Part shown: positions 35,835-60,107 of the stretch, one piece after another
Position numbering within the stretch: the first letter of the stretch is position 1
Layout: every line of letters starts with the position of its first letter
From: Stappia sp. TSB10P1A
GTDB lineage: Bacteria > Pseudomonadota > Alphaproteobacteria > Rhizobiales > Stappiaceae
NCBI RefSeq assembly: GCF_900185725.1
Contig: NZ_FYAU01000018.1
Location: 124,001-188,000 of the forward strand
DNA length: 64,000 nt
Direction of reading: 5' to 3'
The notes under the pieces: model-generated
The model's database searches: none
Told to the model about the DNA's origin: nothing
The model's input: the letters and a program-made list of their open reading frames with translations, nothing else
Made by a program: the position numbers and the translations under genes

Positions 35835-36140
35835 ATGCGATGGACCCGAAGAAGGCCTCACCCTCGCCACCTTGCAGGCGGTCGTGTTACACATGTGAAG
35901 GCTTGTTGGATTTTGATCTCGGATTCTTCCGAGCCGAAGAAGAGTAGTTATCGTCACGAATGTCCGGCGTGTGGAGCCTCGATCATTAGTGTCCATATGC
36001 CAAAAGGCGGGTGGGTGCATTTTGAGGGGTCGAAAGATCTTGCGAAGGTCAAGCATCCCTGTCTTCACCAAGGAGAAGGGCTCAGCAAGCGAAGGGACGA
36101 AGATACTCCCGATTTATTTGATGAGGGAGATTTATTATGA
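35835..36140 (+). CDS. Small cysteine-rich (zinc-ribbon-like) protein of an AT-rich island
   Basis: 101 residues from the ATG at 35835; a GTG at 35895 or TTG at 35913 are also possible and would drop a basic, GC-rich head. The recognisable core is HECPACGASIISVHMPKGGW and later VKHPCLHQGEG, so CxxC plus Cys/His residues could hold one zinc ion. The acidic tail ends DTPDLFDEGDLL. Its stop overlaps the start of the KTSC gene (ATGA). Base composition is far below the surroundings, which points to recent acquisition. No family is recognised. Confidence 0.6.
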   Translation: MRWTRRRPHPRHLAGGRVTHVKACWILISDSSEPKKSSYRHECPACGASIISVHMPKGGWVHFEGSKDLAKVKHPCLHQGEGLSKRRDEDTPDLFDEGDLL

Positions 36141-36361
36141 AGAGATATCGTAATTTGAGTGGTGAATCTGGAATTATTTCATATGACTATGCGGATGATC
36201 GTATAATTGTTAAATTTCATGATGGTCATGAGTATATTTATACATATGCTAGCGCTGGGCGCCATCATGTAGAGGCGATGAAGCGTTTGGCAGATCGCGG
36301 AAGTGGACTGAATTCTTATATAAACAAAAATGTTAGAACGAAATACGCGGAGAAAAGATAG
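36137..36361 (+). CDS. KTSC domain-containing protein
   Basis: 74 residues. Nearly the whole protein matches the KTSC domain (named for similarity to the lysyl-tRNA synthetase C-terminus): LSGESGIISYDYADDRIIVK, FHDGHEYIYTYASAG, HHVEAMKRLADRGSGLNSYI and NKNVRTKYAEK. KTSC proteins are small and often found near phage or mobile genes; their function is not established, though nucleic-acid binding has been suggested. Hand count gives 37% GC over 36121-36360. Translation is coupled to the preceding gene by a 4-base overlap. Confidence 0.85.
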   Translation: MKRYRNLSGESGIISYDYADDRIIVKFHDGHEYIYTYASAGRHHVEAMKRLADRGSGLNSYINKNVRTKYAEKR

Positions 36362-36955
36362 CGCCTTCGGGGCAAATGATACGCTGGATTCCGGATCTGG
36401 CCATGCGGCTGCACCGTAGGCCGTCCGGAATGACGGGAGCGTGTGGGCGGCGCGCGTCCCTCTCACGCCTGCCGGGGGTGCCAATGGTTCCCGGCTCGCG
36501 CTTCGCTTGGCCGGGACGACGGCCGAGGGGGAGGCGGGCTCGGCGGCCTCTCGGTGGTCGCTCGGCATCGTTGCTTGGCAGCCTTGTTCGACATCCTTGG
36601 TCGACAGGCGGCGGCCGGCGAGGCGTGAGCGGAGCGGCGGATGGCTGGTGACGCGTAGTCTTGCCACCCTCTCCATCGTCCCCCCGGACGCAGGCGAAGC
36701 CGGAGATCCGGGGTCCATTCGTTCCCAGAGCGGCCGTGATGGCTGCGAGCCTGCCGGCGTGATCCCGCCGCAGCCCTTCAATCGTCGTTCTCACGCTCAG
36801 CCCCCGCGGGCGCCCTCCCGGACGGCGCATCGCGCCGAGCCGGGATCGGAGAGCCGAGGGCGCCGGTGATCGGCCTTGGTAAAAGCGGCAAGCGCCGTGG
36901 CTCGCCGGTTCCGGGTCGCGGCTGCGCCTTGCCCGGAATGACGAAGAGAGAGGGC
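36362..36955. repeat. Intergenic repeat unit A1
   Basis: From about 36465 to 36955 this is the first of three near-identical units of roughly 450-490 bases. Landmarks are the GC-rich start near GGGACGACGGCCGAGGGGGA, TTCAATCGTCGTTCTCACGC at 36778, and an end at GCCCGGAATGACGAAG. Internal inverted words give strong hairpins. No protein-like frame is present; all long frames here are by-products of GC bias. The first 100 bases after 36362 are the junction with the AT-rich island. Confidence 0.85.
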
Positions 36956-38874: not shown

Positions 38875-39344
38875 AGCCAGCCGATGAGCTGATCAGCCAA
38901 TCGGACAAACCACCGAGCCGCCGATCTGAAGAGCAGCCCGGCGGACAACCGGTCATGCGGACGAGCCGCGGATCAGACGAGCCGCGGATCAGACGAACTG
39001 CGGATCAGACGAACTGCGGTCGGCCGATCGGACAAACGGGCGATCAGCCGATCTGGCGGGCAGTCCGGCAGGCAACCGGTCATGCGGACAATCAGGAGAT
39101 CAGGCGGCCAGAAGATCAGACAAACCACCGAACTGCGGATCAGCCGAACTGCCGGTCAGCCAAGCCACCGCTCCGCCGATCGGACAAACCACCGAACCGC
39201 CGATCGGACAGGGAGCCCGACCGGCAACCGGTGATGCGGCCGAGCCGCGGAACAGGCGAGCGCGGGACAGACGCGCGCGGATCAGGCGAACCGCGGATCA
39301 GCCGAGCCGCGGGACAGACGCGCGCGGATCAGTCGAGCCGCGGA
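38875..39344. repeat. Degenerate minisatellite after greA
   Basis: About 470 bases built from variants of a 16-base word; the cleanest run is GAGCCGCGGATCAGAC twice and GAACTGCGGATCAGAC once at 38963-39010. A higher-order repeat is also visible: the phrase CAACCGGTCATGCGGAC recurs at intervals of about 130-150 bases, as does GGACAAACCACCGA. The word GGATCAGCCGA at the right end includes the greA stop codon. The reading frame across the array on the plus strand has no sign of coding. Confidence 0.9.
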
Positions 39345-39818
39345 TCAGCCGAAGGTGACGTTGATGATCTCGTAGGCGCGGGCGCCGCCGGGCGCGGTGA
39401 CCTCGACGCTGTCGCCGACGGCCTTGCCGATCAGCGCGCGGGCGATGGGCGAGGAGATTGAGATGCGGCCGAGCTTCACGTCCGCCTCGACATCGCCGAC
39501 GATCATGTACTTCTTCTCTTCCTCGGTGTCCTCGTCGATGAGGGTGACCGTGGCGCCGAACTTGATCGTGTCGCCGGACAGCTTGGTGACGTCGATCACC
39601 TCGGCGCGGCCGAGCTTGTCCTCAAGCTCGCTGATGCGGCCCTCGTTGAGGCTCTGCTGTTCCTTGGCGGCGTGATACTCGGCGTTCTCCGACAGGTCGC
39701 CATGGGCGCGCGCCTCGGAGATCGCCTGGATGATGCGCGGCCGCTCTTCCGACATCCGCTGCTTCAGCTCCTTCTCGAGCATGGCATAGCCAGCGCTTGT
39801 CATCGGAACCTTTTCCAT
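39345..39818 (-). CDS. greA: Transcription elongation factor GreA
   Basis: 157 residues from the ATG at 39818. GreA enters the secondary channel of RNA polymerase and stimulates cleavage of backtracked RNA. The N-terminal coiled coil contains the two acidic tip residues in [15 protein letters not shown], and the C-terminal domain shows [20 protein letters not shown] and [13 protein letters not shown]. It lies downstream of carB on the same strand, an order common in Hyphomicrobiales. The last codons are the probable seed of the adjoining minisatellite. Confidence 0.96.
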
Positions 39819-46199: not shown

Positions 46200-47220
46200 G
46201 TCATCCCGGCCGCTCCCCCTGTCCGCGGTCATCACGGGCAAGACGAAGCCGCGACCCGGGAACCATTGGCGCCCTCGGCAGGCGCGAGACGGGAGCGCAT
46301 CGCCACCTCAACGGCTGTCATGCCTGCGAAGGCAGGCATCCAGTATCCGCCGGGGCTGGTGGTGGCGTGAAGCTAGCCGCCTCCGGCGTTCCGGCGGCCG
46401 TCGGTGACCCTGTGGCACCGTCACGGCTCGATCCGCGCGACCTGTGGTTACTGGGTCTTCGGTCTTCGGCTGCGCCGAAACCGGGACGACAGGCTGAGCG
46501 TGGGGTTCGTGCGGGCGCGTCCTCGCCACCGCTCTGGCAGCCAATGGCCCCCGGCTCTGCGCTTGCGCGCGGCCGGGGTGACCTCGGAGGGGGCGCGGGG
46601 TCTTTGCCAGTCTCACCGGCTGTCGTCTCGGCCATGCCTCCCTCTCGGACGTCGTCCCGGACGAGGCCGAAGGCCGAAGATCCGGGATCCATTGGTGCCC
46701 TTGGCAGGCGTGAGGCGGGAGCGCATCGCCACCTCAACGGCTGTCATGCCTGCGAAGGCAGGCATCCAGTATCCGCCGGGGCTGGTGGTGGCGTGAAACT
46801 AGCCGCCTCCGGCGTTCCGGCGGCCGTCGGTGACCCTGTGGCACCGTCACGGCTCGATCCGCGCGACCTGTGGTTACTGGGTCCCGGTCTTCGGCTGCGC
46901 CGAAACCGGGACGACAGGCTGAGCGTGGGGTTCGTGCGGGCGCGTCCTCGCCACCGCTCTGGCAGCCAATGGCCCCCGGCTCTGCGCTTGCGCGCGGCCG
47001 GGGTGACCTCGGAGGGGGCGCCGGGTCTTTGCCAGTCTCACCGGCTGTCGTCTCGGCCATGCCTCCCTCTCGGACGTCGTCCCGGACGAGGCCGAAGGCC
47101 GAAGATCCGGGATCCATTGGTGCCCTCGGCAGGCGTGAGGCGGGAGCGCGTTGCCACCGCCCGGCTGTCATACCTGCGAAGGCAGGTATCCAGTATCCGC
47201 CGGGGTGAGCAGGAGCACGA
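46200..47220. repeat. Tandem intergenic repeat array B (two and a fraction units of about 426 bases)
   Basis: A unit of about 426 bases is present twice in tandem and a third time in part: the phrase ACGGCTGTCA is at 46311 and 46737, and a variant at 47162. Each unit holds the hairpin ATGCCTGC-GAAG-GCAGGCAT, the words ACCGGGACGACAG and CCAATGGCCCCCGG, and the reverse-oriented module GATCCGGGATCCATTGG. The second unit differs from the first by only a few bases, so the duplication looks recent. No coding sign was found. Confidence 0.93.
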
Positions 47221-56168: not shown

Positions 56169-56266
56169 GGCGAGGGCTTGCATCATCGGCGGGCGCGGGA
56201 CAGTCTGGCGGCGGTGCGAATCCCGTGCGGCCGCAACGGAATTCGGGGCGGCTGGGAAAGTGGCGG

Positions 56267-57865
56267 ATGACCAACAAGCTCTATTATGGCGACAATCTCG
56301 GCGTGCTGCGCGACCATGTCGCCGACGAGAGCGTCGATCTTGTCTATCTCGACCCGCCGTTCAACTCCAACGCCACCTACAACGTGCTGTTCAAGGCGCC
56401 GGACGGGGCGCAGAGCCAGTCGCAGATCGAGGCCTTCGACGACACCTGGCAATGGGGCGAGACCGCCGAGGATGCCTATTGGCAGGTGCTGAAAGGGCCG
56501 AACAGCGAGGCGGCGCGCATGCTGGAGGCGATGCGCGGCTTTCTCGGCGAGAACGCCATGATGGCCTATCTCGCGATGATGGCGATCCGCCTCATCGAAC
56601 TGCACCGGGTGCTGAAGCCGACCGGCAGCCTCTATCTGCATTGCGACCCTACAGCCAGCCACTATCTCAAGATCCTGCTGGATGCGATCTTTGGGGCGCG
56701 CCAGTTTGAAAACGAGGTCGTATGGCAGAGAACGAATACGAAAGCTCATGCTTTCACGAGATTTAGTTCCTCGCATGATGTTATTTTTTACTATAGAAAG
56801 AGTGGTGATTTTACTTGGAATCCGCAATATCTACCTCATTCCGATGATTACATTAAATCTCATTATGGAAATATTGAAGAAGAAACTGGAAGAAGATATA
56901 CTCTGGGAGACTGTACAAATCCGAACCCAGATCGGCCAAATTTAACGTACGAGTGGATGGGGGTAACAAAAGTTTGGAGGTGGACGAAAGAAAAAATGCA
57001 GTCAATGCATGATCAGGGTAGGATCATTTATACAAAGTCCGGTGCTCCGAGATACAAACGCTATCTGGACGAGATGAAGGGCACGCCAATCAGCAGTGTC
57101 TGGACCGACATCCCTCCAATCAATTCCCAAGCCCAGGAACGCCTCGGCTATCCGACCCAGAAACCCGTGGCGCTGCTGGAGCGGATCGTTTCCGCCTCGT
57201 CCAATCCGGGCGATGTGGTGCTCGATCCCTTTTGCGGCTGCGGCACCACCGTGCATGCGGCGCAGAAGCTCGGGCGCGCCTGGATCGGCATCGACGTCAC
57301 CCATCTCGCCATCTCGCTGATCGAGCGGCGGCTGCGCGACGCCTTCGGCACGGACGCCCGCTTCACCACCTATGGCGTGCCCAAGGACATCGGCGCGGCG
57401 CGCGATCTCGCCGCCCGCGACAAGCACGAATTCGAGAAATGGGCGATCTCGCTCATCCCCGACGCGCAGCCCTTTCGCGGCGGCAAGAAGGGCGCGGACA
57501 CCGGCATCGACGGCATCGTCTACATGCGCACCGAGAAGAACCGCACCGACAAGGCGATCGTCGAGGTCAAGGGCGGGGGCGTCTCGGTCGACCAGATCCA
57601 CAAGCTCAAGAGCGTCATCGAGCGGGAAAAGGCGCTGGTCGGCCTGTTCGTGACGCTGACCCCGCCGACCAAGCCGATGATCGCCGAGGCCGCCGCCGCC
57701 GGCTTCGCCGACACCGCGTTCGGGCGGGTTCCGCGCCTCCAGATCCTGACCATCGAGGGGATCCTCGAACACCGGGAAGTGCCGCGCCTGCCGGCCGTCG
57801 ACTCGTCCGCCTTCAAGAAGGCGCCCAAGGAGAAGCAGCAGGGACAGACCTCCCTCGACCTGTGA
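56267..57865 (+). CDS. DNA methyltransferase (DPPF type) fused to an Mrr-like nuclease domain, with a transplanted central segment
   Basis: 532 residues from the ATG at 56267, with GGGAAAG upstream. Motif IV is DPPF (29-32) in VDLVYLDPPFN, and the cofactor motif comes late (DPFCGCGTTVHAAQKLGRAW), giving the beta order of amino-methyltransferases; the methylated base is adenine N6 or cytosine N4. The C-terminal part (about 388-505) fits a PD-(D/E)xK Mrr-like domain: ADTGIDGIVYM and AIVEVKGGGVS. Between them, residues about 146-267 are encoded by DNA of 40% GC (hand count over 56701-57060), against 62-73% in sampled flanks, while the frame stays open. This is where a target-recognition domain is expected. 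Confidence 0.9.
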   Translation: MTNKLYYGDNLGVLRDHVADESVDLVYLDPPFNSNATYNVLFKAPDGAQSQSQIEAFDDTWQWGETAEDAYWQVLKGPNSEAARMLEAMRGFLGENAMMAYLAMMAIRLIELHRVLKPTGSLYLHCDPTASHYLKILLDAIFGARQFENEVVWQRTNTKAHAFTRFSSSHDVIFYYRKSGDFTWNPQYLPHSDDYIKSHYGNIEEETGRRYTLGDCTNPNPDRPNLTYEWMGVTKVWRWTKEKMQSMHDQGRIIYTKSGAPRYKRYLDEMKGTPISSVWTDIPPINSQAQERLGYPTQKPVALLERIVSASSNPGDVVLDPFCGCGTTVHAAQKLGRAWIGIDVTHLAISLIERRLRDAFGTDARFTTYGVPKDIGAARDLAARDKHEFEKWAISLIPDAQPFRGGKKGADTGIDGIVYMRTEKNRTDKAIVEVKGGGVSVDQIHKLKSVIEREKALVGLFVTLTPPTKPMIAEAAAAGFADTAFGRVPRLQILTIEGILEHREVPRLPAVDSSAFKKAPKEKQQGQTSLDL

Positions 57866-59760
57866 GGCCGCGCCGCCATGCGTGGGCGTCCTCGCTGTCT
57901 GTCGTGGTGCTGCCGATGTGCTGCCGATGTGCCGTTCCCTTCGCGCCTGCCTCTCCCGGCGTCATTCCGGGCGAGGCCGCAGGCCGAAGACCCGGAACCG
58001 GGGAGGCACGGTGGGTGTGGCGTCGTTCGGGCGCGGGGCCGAGAGGCTCTCGGCTCGCCGGTCCCGGGTCGCGGCTTCGCCTTGCCCGGGATGACGAAAG
58101 GAGAGGGCGGAGCGGGAGGACGCGCAGAAAAGGGGATGCTGCCGGGAGCGGGAAAGGAGGCCCTCGCGCGCGGGAGGACGCAACGCGGGTGCGGAGTGCT
58201 GTTTCGGCCGCTCTGGGAACGAATAGCCCCCGGCGCTCCGGCTTCGCCTGCGGCCGGGGTGACCTCCGAGGGTGGGGCGTGGCCGTGCCTCCCCCACGGA
58301 GGTCATCCCGGTCGCGCGTGAGCGCGAACCGGGAACCAATGGCCCCCTCAGCGGATGTTTGTCGCACTTGATCTCTCCCCGCGTCATTCCGGGCGAGCAT
58401 CGCGAGACCCGGAACCGGGGAGGCACGGTGGGTGCGGCGTCGTTCGGGCGCGCGGCCGAGAGGCTCTCGGCTCGCCGGTCCCGGCTCGGCGCTCGCGCGC
58501 CGTCCGGGAGGACGCGAGGAGGGGGCGGAGCGGGAGGACGCAACGCGGGTGCGGAGTGCTGTTTCGGCCGCTCTGGGAACGAATAGCCCCCGGCGCTCCG
58601 GCTTCGCCTGCGGCCGGGGTGACCTCCGAGGGTGGGGCGTGGCCGTGCCTCCCCCACGGAGGTCATCCCGGTCGCGCGTGAGCGCGAACCGGGAACCAAT
58701 GGCCCCCTCAGCGGATGCTTGTCGCACTTGATCTCTCCCCGCGTCATTCCGGGCGAGCATCGCGAGACCCGGAACCGGGGAGGCACGGTGGGTGTGGCGT
58801 CGTTCGGGAGCGTGGCCGAGAGGCTCTTGGCTCGCCGGTCCCGGGTCGCGGCTTCGCCTTGCCCGGGATGACGAAAGGAGAGGGCGGAGCGGGAGGGCGC
58901 GCAGAAAAGGGGATGCTGCCGGGAGCGGGAAAGGAGGGCCTCGCGCGCGGGAGGACGCAACGCGGGTGCGGAGTGCCGCCTCTGCCGCTCTGGGAACGAA
59001 TAGCCCCCGGCTCTCCGGCTTCGCCTGCGGCCGGGGTGACCTCCGAGGGTGGGGCGTGGCCGTGCCTCCCCCACGGAGGTCATCCCGGTCGCGCGTGAGC
59101 GCGAACCGGGAACCAATGGCCCCCTCAGCGGATGTTTGTCGCACTTGATCTCTCCCCGCGTCATTCCGGGCGAGCATCGCGAGACCCGGAACCGGGGAGG
59201 CACGGTGGGTGTGGCGTCGTTCGGGCGCGGGGCCGAGAGGCTCTTGGCTCGCCGGTCCCGGCTCGGCGCTCGCGCGCCGTCCGGGAGGACGCGAGGAGGG
59301 GGCGGAGCGGGAGGACGCGCAGAAAAGGGGATGCTGCCGGGAGCGGGAAAGGAGGGCCTCGCGCGCGGGAGGACGCAACGCGGGTGCGGAGTGCTGTTTC
59401 GGCCGCTCTGGGAACGAATAGCCCCCGGCTCTCCGGCTTCGCCTGCGGCCGGGGTGACCTCCGAGGGTGGGGCGTGGCCGTGCCTCCCCCACGGAGGTCA
59501 TCCCGGTCGCGCGTGAGCGCGAACCGGGAACCAATGGCCCCCTCAGCGGATGTTTGTCGCACTTGATCTCTCCCCGCGTCATTCCGGGCGAGCATCGCGA
59601 GACCCGGAACCGGGGAGGCAGAAGCGGGTGTGGCGTCCTTCGGGCGCGTGGCCGAGAGGCTCTTGGCTCGCCGGTCCCGGCTCGGCGCTCGCGCGCCGTC
59701 CGGGAGGACGCGAGGAGGGGGCGGAGCGGGAGGACGCCAAGGAGAGAGCCGCGCGCCGTC
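57866..59760. repeat. Tandem intergenic repeat array D (four units plus ends)
   Basis: The start word GCGTCATTCCGGGCGAG recurs at about 57958, 58381, 58741, 59158 and 59576, so units are about 360-423 bases and arranged head to tail. Each contains GAACCGGGGAGGCACGGTGG, GGCTCGCCGGTCCCGG, GGGAACGAATAGCCCCCGG, and the hairpin TCCCGGT-CGCGC-GTGA-GCGCG-AACCGGGA. Units differ by replaced inner segments, as if exchanged between copies. The long open frames here only reflect the repeats. An 11-base tandem duplication (GTGCTGCCGAT) stands at the left end, after the methyltransferase gene. Confidence 0.95.
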
Positions 59761-60107
59761 GCGGGCGCTGCTCACCCCCCTCTGTCGGCTGCGCCGACAT
59801 CTCCCCCTCATCTCTTTCGCGGGGGGGAGAGGGGCGCGCGCGGCTCGGCCCGCGTGTCGTCGCCAGCGCTCTGGCAACCAATAGCCCCCGGATCTCGCGA
59901 TGCTCGTCCGGGGCGACCTCCGAGAGGATGCGAGGTCGGGCGTCATTCTCAGGGGGCGTCCCGGTTATCCCCGTCCTCTCGTCGCACGGGGCTCCCCCTT
60001 TCGTCGTATTCCGGCATAGGCTGGCATCTGCCGCGCCGGGATCTCGTCCGTATCCGGCTCAAAGGGCGGGCGCCCACAATCGGGAGCGCGGCGCGAAGGA
60101 GGGTTGA
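59761..60107. other. End of the repeat array and promoter of the DoxX gene
   Basis: Different repeat words follow (TCGGCTGCGCCGACATCTCC near 59785; CTCTGGCAACCAATAGCCCC at 59869). The second is an inverted relative of sequence at 63755-63825. Promoter and leader of the DoxX gene must lie at the right end; GAAGGAGG precedes its start. No gene is supported. Confidence 0.5.

What the first reader, a model, noticed from the sequence alone, without database searches (positions are those of the whole stretch)
56267..57865. Methyltransferase-nuclease fusion with a transplanted low-GC specificity segment
The frame joins a beta-order DNA methyltransferase (DPPF at residues 29-32, DPFCGCGTT late) to a C-terminal PD-(D/E)xK Mrr-like domain. 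Between motif IV and the cofactor motif, bases about 56701-57060 have 40% GC by hand count, while sampled 60-base lines on either side have 62% and 73%. The frame stays open through both borders and the segment covers the part where target-recognition domains lie. A recombined specificity module that changes the methylated site is the simplest reading. The tandem repeat array directly downstream could aid recombination.
Basis: partly seen in the sequence, partly recalled or inferred. Interest (0 to 1): 0.8.

Follow-up and report, generated by a model that had tools for sequence, protein, structure and literature searches.

The report
Target-swapping methyltransferase-nuclease with probable clamp-binding tail
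This is a stand-alone bacterial gene, with relatives in many phages, that joins a DNA-marking enzyme to a nuclease-like domain and ends in a probable docking tag for the replication clamp; its target-choosing middle section has been swapped in from elsewhere, so the enzyme can probably change which DNA sites it marks.

Summary
Frame 56267-57865 encodes a beta-class DNA methyltransferase fused to an Mrr/MspJI-like domain; bases 56701-57060 are 40.0% GC, the lowest of 6364 360-bp windows. The transplanted specificity segment is strongly supported: the scaffold-closest homologues (88-89% identical outside the segment) share 22-53% inside it, while more distant scaffolds (51-72%) share 74-81%. Swapping is the family's habit: TRD distances do not follow scaffold distances (rho -0.13 to 0.05), and collinear bacterial and phage pairs break within the gene only at the TRD. 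Low GC alone is weaker evidence: TRD GC3 is lower in 75 of 77 cellular members. The downstream repeats are not needed.

New here: a low-confidence, probably disordered tail carries Q-x-x-L-(x)-[L/F], the beta sliding-clamp-binding consensus, in 59 of 77 cellular members against 1 of 610 neighbouring ORFs and 0 of 23 other methyltransferases. No partner gene recurs in more than 4 of 80 loci. Best reading: a solo, clamp-tethered modification enzyme with its own nuclease domain and an exchangeable TRD. Clamp binding, methylation and cleavage are inferred, not shown.

The parts
56267..57865 (+). whole gene: beta-class DNA methyltransferase + Mrr/MspJI-like domain + C-terminal tail (532 aa)
56351..56362 (+). 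catalytic motif IV, DPPF (residues 29-32), invariant in 77 of 77 aligned
56699..57106 (+). swapped target-recognition segment (residues 145-280), low GC
   Evidence: borders are approximate
57224..57247 (+). AdoMet motif I, DPFCGCGT (residues 320-327)
57380..57796 (+). Mrr/MspJI-like PD-(D/E)xK domain (residues 372-510)
57497..57571 (+). putative active site D411, D415, E433-x-K435; D411, D415 and K435 invariant in 77 of 77 cellular and 80 of 80 viral members; residue 433 is E here, S or Q in most relatives
57803..57862 (+). C-terminal tail (residues 513-532), low model confidence, probably disordered
   Evidence: pLDDT under 50 at 513-517 and 524-532; block means 50-59
57845..57862 (+). putative beta-clamp-binding hexapeptide QTSLDL (residues 527-532)
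56173..59961 (.). stretch absent from the same-genus genome G005, where the flanks are joined by 36 bp (gene plus repeats; may be more than one event)
   Evidence: locus L132

Best explanation
A solo, horizontally acquired enzyme built as fixed scaffold plus exchangeable cassette. The methyltransferase domain marks a short site chosen by the TRD between motif IV and motif I. Recombination in the conserved coding sequence on either side replaces that TRD and so changes the site in one step (replacement shown by comparison; change of site inferred). The C-terminal Mrr/MspJI-like domain is a nuclease that uses the same TRD, or needs no sequence of its own, because TRDs change while it stays nearly constant (inferred). 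The flexible tail ends in a beta-clamp-binding peptide that holds the enzyme on newly replicated DNA, so nascent strands are marked at once, before the attached nuclease or another restriction enzyme can act on them (inferred from the motif and from precedents). In phages the same enzyme would mark phage DNA as it is copied, if that replication uses the host clamp (inferred).
For: TRD exchange: segment identities, nucleotide profile; TRD against every other segment rho -0.13 to 0.05 versus 0.34-0.57 among the rest (2926 pairs); of the 45 closest scaffold pairs listed, 43 have TRDs 53% identical or less. Of 9 close pairs compared at DNA level, 8 break inside the gene at the TRD (L034/L035, same TRD type, does not); two of them, L089/L101 and L045/L098, are collinear beyond the gene at about 83-95%. 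Of 5 Likavirus pairs, 4 break at the TRD, e.g. Yasdnil/Ejemplo, 96-97% on both sides with TRD 40%. TRD types scattered on the scaffold tree (8 commonest: 32 changes, shuffled mean 34.4, as low in 28 of 200; one type, T13, is mildly clustered, 16 of 500). Composition: scaffold GC3 follows flanking GC (rho 0.85), TRD GC3 hardly (0.33), 75 loci. Clamp peptide: Q..L.?[LF] in the last 12 residues of 59 of 77 cellular and 38 of 80 viral members; loose form 73 of 77 and 57 of 80; neighbouring ORFs 1 of 610 and 4 of 400 (strict), 9 of 610 and 14 of 400 (loose); 0 of 23 other methyltransferases. Solo: no ORF cluster shared by more than 4 of 80 loci; the window's neighbours are DUF930, DoxX and TetR genes. 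Nuclease domain: Mrr_cat in 60 of 60 scanned, fold, D411/D415/K435 in 157 of 157. Horizontal: 0 of 13 other same-genus genomes has a full-length homologue; empty site.
Against: No binding, methylation or cleavage was measured. Residue 433 of the ExK motif is S in 66 of 77 cellular and 46 of 80 viral members and Q in 34 viral, and 58 of 60 domains also match Pfam's 'inactive restriction endonuclease' NA-iREase1, so the nuclease may be weak or dead in many relatives. In 23 of 80 viral members even the loose motif is missing from the last 12 residues. The motif patterns were written after seeing the family's ends, and the comparison ORFs are mechanical, not verified genes. A motif check on this genome's own two Y-family polymerases and part of a DnaE found no comparable peptide, so there is no in-genome positive control. 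One plasmid relative (L122) has a separate Mrr-type nuclease gene about 220 bp upstream, so not every member is without a neighbour nuclease.
Confidence: 0.6

Rival explanations
1. Clamp-tethered modification enzyme only: the Mrr-like domain is a degenerate nuclease kept for DNA binding, and the protein is an orphan, anti-restriction or epigenetic methyltransferase with exchangeable TRD.
For: S instead of E or Q at position 433 in 112 of 157 members; match to NA-iREase1 in 58 of 60 and, in phage Hippo, a better one (56.7 bits) than to Mrr_cat (31.2); phage members have no annotated nuclease partner next to them and are annotated as methyltransferases.
Against: D411, D415 and K435 invariant in 157 of 157, hard to explain for a dead site; the window's clade and three other branches carry the canonical E (4 changes on the tree); 34 of 80 viral members carry the Mrr-type Q.
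Confidence: 0.3
2. Ordinary single-chain restriction-modification enzyme with TRD swapping; the C-terminal peptide is unrelated to the clamp (dimerisation tail or degradation signal).
For: Methyltransferase and nuclease-like domain in one chain, no recurrent partner gene; hydrophobic C-termini could be protease signals (recalled); no positive control in the same genome.
Against: The nearly invariant Q with L three residues on is the clamp consensus, and QxxL[L/F/I] and QxxLx[L/F] alternate at one place, as pentamer and hexamer clamp motifs do (recalled; QLxLF consensus in PMC4549789, passages). Members with extra residues after the motif keep it (L060 QLPLD and L081 QLTLA; L121 QASLSLD and L004 QLELTF), unlike a terminal degron.
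Confidence: 0.15
3. The GC dip is a compositional constraint of TRD sequence, not a sign of import.
For: GC3 lower in the TRD in 75 of 77 cellular, 63 of 80 viral and 4 of 6 Streptomyces phage members.
Against: In the six Streptomyces phage members total GC of the TRD differs by at most 0.03 from the rest; the identity profiles show replacement whatever the GC.
Confidence: 0.05

Closest known systems
Type III Mod subunits (EcoP15I Mod; H. pylori mod TRD exchange, PMC3983042, passages read)
   Same: beta-class order with the TRD between motif IV and motif I; Foldseek's first hit is EcoP15I (4zcf); TRDs move between genes by recombination at sequences for conserved methyltransferase motifs and across species
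   Different: no recurrent Res helicase gene nearby; carries its own Mrr/MspJI-like domain and a clamp-type tail
Type IIC / IIG single-chain restriction-modification enzymes (PMC12707154, passages read)
   Same: methyltransferase and nuclease-like domain in one polypeptide; the TRD would serve both
   Different: here beta-class methyltransferase first and nuclease-like domain C-terminal; archetypal IIG enzymes have an N-terminal nuclease and a gamma-class methyltransferase (recalled)
MspJI/Mrr family modification-dependent nucleases (PMC12707154, passages read)
   Same: fold of the C-terminal domain (AspBHI Z 10.3, rmsd 3.1, 118 aligned; MspJI Z 9.5, rmsd 3.8, 124 aligned), D...xK site
   Different: fused to a methyltransferase instead of an SRA or winged-helix reader; E at 433 in the window, S or Q in most relatives, where the review gives PD-QxK for MspJI and Mrr
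NucS/EndoMS (PMC9690074, passages read)
   Same: PD-(D/E)xK-type nuclease (EndoMS Z 8.4, rmsd 3.2, 98 aligned) with a beta-clamp-binding motif
   Different: mismatch-specific endonuclease without a methyltransferase
DNMT1-PCNA (PMC9690074, passages read) and the plasmid methyltransferases M.EcoGIX and M.BceJIII (PMC7736820, passages read)
   Same: methyltransferase coupled to the replication machinery
   Different: DNMT1 is eukaryotic and methylates cytosine; M.EcoGIX and M.BceJIII associate with Pol I, the sliding clamp being only suggested there as a possible intermediary

Membership tests
beta-class N6-adenine/N4-cytosine DNA methyltransferase | motif IV before TRD before motif I; N6_N4_Mtase profile | tested here: met
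beta-class N6-adenine/N4-cytosine DNA methyltransferase | fold | tested here: met
   CcrM Z 25.5 (rmsd 3.4, 224 aligned), M.BceJIV 25.2 (2.9, 243), M.RsrI 25.1 (2.8, 250); tied
beta-class N6-adenine/N4-cytosine DNA methyltransferase | methylates a specific site | not testable with these tools
   no methylome data
Mrr/MspJI PD-(D/E)xK nuclease | profile and fold | tested here: met
   Foldseek alone was weak (best E 1.3e-3, MspJI) and a sequence profile found no solved relative
Mrr/MspJI PD-(D/E)xK nuclease | D...(E/Q)xK catalytic residues | tested here: met
   window D415, E433, K435 (met for this protein); in the family 433 is S in 112 of 157, Q in 34, E in 11
Mrr/MspJI PD-(D/E)xK nuclease | cuts DNA | not testable with these tools
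   -
Type III restriction-modification | Res helicase-nuclease partner gene | tested here: not met
   no recurrent neighbour in 80 loci (largest cluster 4 loci, mechanical ORFs); the window's neighbours carry DUF930, DoxX, TetR, SnoaL_2 and DAO domains
Type IIC/IIG single-chain restriction-modification | modification and nuclease-like domains in one polypeptide | tested here: met
   activity of the nuclease part not tested
Type IIG archetype | N-terminal nuclease domain, gamma-class methyltransferase (recalled) | tested here: not met
   nuclease-like domain C-terminal, beta order
beta-clamp-binding proteins | conserved QL(S/D)LF / Q-x-x-L-(x)-[L/F]-like peptide in a flexible tail | tested here: met
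beta-clamp-binding proteins | binds DnaN | not testable with these tools
   single-chain structure prediction only

The most novel reading that the evidence does not exclude
A family shared by bacteria and phages of self-contained restriction-modification enzymes that ride the replication clamp: methyltransferase, nuclease and hot-swappable TRD in one chain, with clamp tethering solving the hazard that freshly replicated sites, above all sites marked on one strand only, are briefly unprotected. It would be a prokaryotic counterpart of DNMT1-PCNA with a nuclease attached.
Probability: 0.4. Interest if true: 0.82.

Novelty: new variant of a known kind. Interest (0 to 1): 0.6.

Why it matters
TRD exchange is known for Type I and Type III systems, but here near-identical scaffolds in bacteria and in phages carry different TRDs at the same place, a natural experiment in reprogramming DNA methylation. 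If the tail binds the sliding clamp, this gives a direct test of how a modification enzyme keeps up with replication and protects the daughter duplex, and of how phages mark their DNA as it is made.

Tried and rejected
Rejected: a need for the downstream repeats in the swap. The unit is a dispersed genomic repeat, its array as delimited by TRF starts about 305 bp after the stop codon, and swaps occur in other genomes and in phages (repeats near those genes were not looked for). Rejected: an operon partner; one exception is plasmid locus L122, with an Mrr_cat gene upstream. Rejected: reading the GC dip by itself as proof of import (family-wide).

Inconclusive: a clamp-type peptide in the genome's own two Y-family polymerases and part of a DnaE (the DnaE frame was cut by the stretch held). 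Sequence profile of the C-terminal domain against PDB chains: nothing credible. Foldseek alone was weak for that domain (best E 1.3e-3, MspJI), so the fold claim rests on the second look plus Pfam. Rfam at gathering threshold: no hit in the window. TRD-only searches found relatives at 65% identity or less, so no recent donor was identified. Of 7 same-genus loci compared for an empty site, L132 shows a clean join and L137 both flanks with about 650 bp between them; the other 5 did not show the downstream flank in the expected place.

Rows dropped: L038, L043, L047 and L092 held stops in my extraction and were left out of the 77-row alignment (L043's stops lie at and beyond its natural end); they are counted (81 rows = 80 loci + window). 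The structure alignments A1 and A2 used 57 and 60 of the 77 usable sequences. Only the best 80 of 374 cellular and the best 80 of 349 viral candidates were held, so both sets lean towards near relatives. In one search, 23 of the 29 loci scanned gave a methyltransferase ORF; they are probably mostly CcrM-like, which was not checked. For viral members locus GC included the gene itself, which raises those correlations; for cellular members it did not.

Literature: nine searches of the held open-access library. Searches returned nothing; in the other lists, capped and judged mostly by title and start of abstract, I saw no description of a bacterial methyltransferase with a clamp-binding motif or of this fusion. 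Passages were read of PMC12707154, PMC7736820, PMC4549789, PMC9690074, PMC13201069, PMC12704722 and PMC3983042; no paper was read whole.

Full report
What is there. The frame 56267-57865 encodes 532 residues. Motif IV DPPF (29-32) precedes motif I DPFCGCGT (320-327), the beta-class order; Pfam gives N6_N4_Mtase at 23-351 and Mrr_cat at 385-477, both above their cut-offs. The GC dip is real: 40.0% in 56701-57060 against 62.0% and 66.6% in the rest of the gene, the lowest of 6364 360-bp windows in the 64 kb; the best-fitting segment is 56705-57038.

Structure. An AlphaFold2 model from 57 sequences has mean pLDDT 85. Its methyltransferase part matches CcrM (Z 25.5), M.BceJIV (25.2) and M.RsrI (25.1), all tied; Foldseek's first hit is the Type III enzyme EcoP15I. 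The C-terminal domain folded alone (mean pLDDT 88) matches AspBHI (Z 10.3, rmsd 3.1, 118 aligned), AF1548 (10.2), MspJI (9.5) and EndoMS (8.4) on the second look; Foldseek alone was weak (best E 1.3e-3, MspJI). The last residues have low confidence (under 50 at 513-517 and 524-532; block means 50-59), as a disordered tail would.

The family. One scan of genome contigs gave 374 relatives, of which the best 80 were kept, full-length or nearly so and mostly alphaproteobacterial by record title. Among 61 genomes (the window's and 60 relatives) only the window's and one order-level genome (44% identity) have a full-length match; none of the 13 other same-genus genomes does. In one of these, G005, the flanks of the window's insertion are joined by 36 bp where the window has 3.8 kb; a second locus, L137, shows both flanks with about 650 bp between them, too short for the gene; the other 5 of 7 loci were not informative. 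Relatives covering at least 80% of the protein also lie in 28 phage records (Streptomyces likaviruses, Mycobacterium phages, a Marinitoga phage) and 8 plasmid records, and 349 viral contig candidates were found, of which the best 80 were kept. No neighbouring ORF cluster is shared by more than 4 of 80 loci; the window's neighbours carry DUF930, DoxX, TetR, SnoaL_2 and DAO domains. So the gene appears to work alone, with one exception seen: plasmid locus L122 has a separate Mrr_cat gene upstream.

The specificity segment is exchanged. In an alignment of 77 proteins the window's scaffold is nearest to L033, L036, L039 and L042, but its residues 145-280 are only 0.28-0.53 identical to theirs; they are 0.81, 0.77 and 0.74 identical to L034, L035 and L060, whose Mrr parts are only 0.58, 0.60 and 0.38. 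Nucleotide identity drops at both borders in step. Across 2926 pairs TRD distance is uncorrelated with every other segment (-0.13 to 0.05), while the other segments correlate with each other at 0.34-0.57; of the 45 closest scaffold pairs listed, 43 have TRDs 53% identical or less. Nine close pairs were compared at DNA level: eight break inside the gene at the TRD, and L034/L035, which share a TRD type, do not. L089/L101 have scaffolds 99% and TRDs 25% identical and are collinear at 91-95% DNA over about 13 kb, with the TRD gap and one short gap beyond the gene; L045/L098 repeat this at about 83-90%; in the other pairs the match hardly leaves the gene or the neighbourhood is rearranged. Of five Streptomyces phage pairs, four break at the TRD, as in Yasdnil and Ejemplo, 96-97% identical on both sides of a TRD that is 40% identical; Hippo and SarahRose align throughout, with TRDs 57% identical. 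On a quick scaffold tree the eight commonest TRD types need 32 changes against a shuffled mean of 34.4, as low in 28 of 200 shuffles; one type (T13) is mildly clustered. Among the 80 viral members the TRD is likewise uncorrelated with the rest (-0.11 to 0.01).

What the low GC means. In cellular genomes the scaffold's third-position GC follows the surrounding DNA (rho 0.85) and the TRD's hardly does (0.33; 75 loci); it is lower in 75 of 77. In viral contigs both follow the locus (0.80 and 0.77, the locus here including the gene), with the TRD lower in 63 of 80. In six Streptomyces phage members total GC differs by at most 0.03, GC3 being lower in 4 of 6. Import from a less GC-rich pool, perhaps mobile elements, fits this, but no recent donor was found. 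The dip alone is not proof; the identity profiles are.

The tail. Most cellular homologues end in Q-x-x-L-[L/F/I] or Q-x-x-L-x-[L/F/I] (66 of 81 exactly at the end, 75 of 81 in a looser form, against 0 and 2 of 521 neighbouring ORFs); the window ends QTSLDL. In the 77-row alignment Q527 is kept in 75 and L530 in 72, while the linker just before varies. Strict motif in the last 12 residues: 59 of 77 cellular and 38 of 80 viral members, against 1 of 610 and 4 of 400 neighbouring ORFs; loose motif 73 of 77 and 57 of 80, against 9 of 610 and 14 of 400. None of 23 other methyltransferases from related genomes has it. Several members with longer tails keep it internally. The patterns were written after seeing the family, but the consensus is independent: bacterial clamp binders carry QL(S/D)LF, with more variability possible (PMC9690074, passages), and the same pattern, conserved Gln plus hydrophobic residues at positions 4 and 5 in a variable context, was used to predict and then show clamp binding of an alphaproteobacterial transposase (PMC4549789, passages). 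A check on this genome's own polymerases gave no positive control. Binding itself was not tested.

The nuclease domain. D411, D415 and K435 are invariant in 157 of 157 members; residue 433 is E in the window and 10 other cellular members, S in 112 and Q in 34. On the tree this residue needs 4 changes (direction not known). The window therefore has a canonical D...ExK site, many viral members the Mrr-like QxK, and the S forms may be weaker or inactive; 58 of 60 domains also match a Pfam family called inactive. Because TRDs are replaced while this domain stays nearly constant, its action must go through the same TRD or need no sequence of its own (inference).

Mechanism. The best-supported account is a solo methyltransferase with exchangeable TRD that is held on newly replicated DNA by the clamp and carries a nuclease domain. 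Shown by comparison: architecture, TRD exchange, motif conservation, mostly solo context, horizontal arrival. Inferred: clamp binding, changed methylation site, cleavage. Nearest precedents are TRD movement in Type III mod genes (PMC3983042, passages), replication-associated plasmid methyltransferases that pair with Pol I (PMC7736820, passages) and NucS, a clamp-bound nuclease (PMC9690074, passages). The searches listed under Tried and rejected showed no description of this combination, but the library holds open-access papers only and most hits were judged by title.

Verdict. A new variant of a known kind, well supported as a TRD-swapping fusion family; the clamp link is the more surprising part and is easy to test.

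Noticed in passing
window 58170-59737 and 46256-47205: Tandem arrays of 360-425 bp repeats; a 35-bp stretch of the first array occurs at 12 sites in the genome with up to 3 mismatches, 4 of them in this array.
   Followed up: partly
window 35881-36450: The only other place in the window below 45% GC in 360-bp steps, with a 74-aa ORF at 36137-36361 that looks KTSC-like from memory; Pfam gave no match at 0.001.
   Followed up: partly
L125 4079-5657: In the Sinorhizobium fredii GR64 plasmid the family member is annotated as two ORFs, split near the start of the TRD.
   Followed up: no
L122 2816-5740: In a Cellulosimicrobium plasmid a separate Mrr_cat nuclease gene lies about 220 bp upstream of the family member.
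   Followed up: partly
L052, L061/L104, L077/L093/L106 and the window clade: The residue before x-K in the nuclease motif switches between S and E in 4 changes on the scaffold tree; viral members use S or Q.
   Followed up: partly
L052 and L103: One metagenome bin (YF1.bin4) holds two family members with different TRD types.
   Followed up: no
window 38960-39353: Cluster of short, degenerate 16-47 bp tandem repeats.
   Followed up: no
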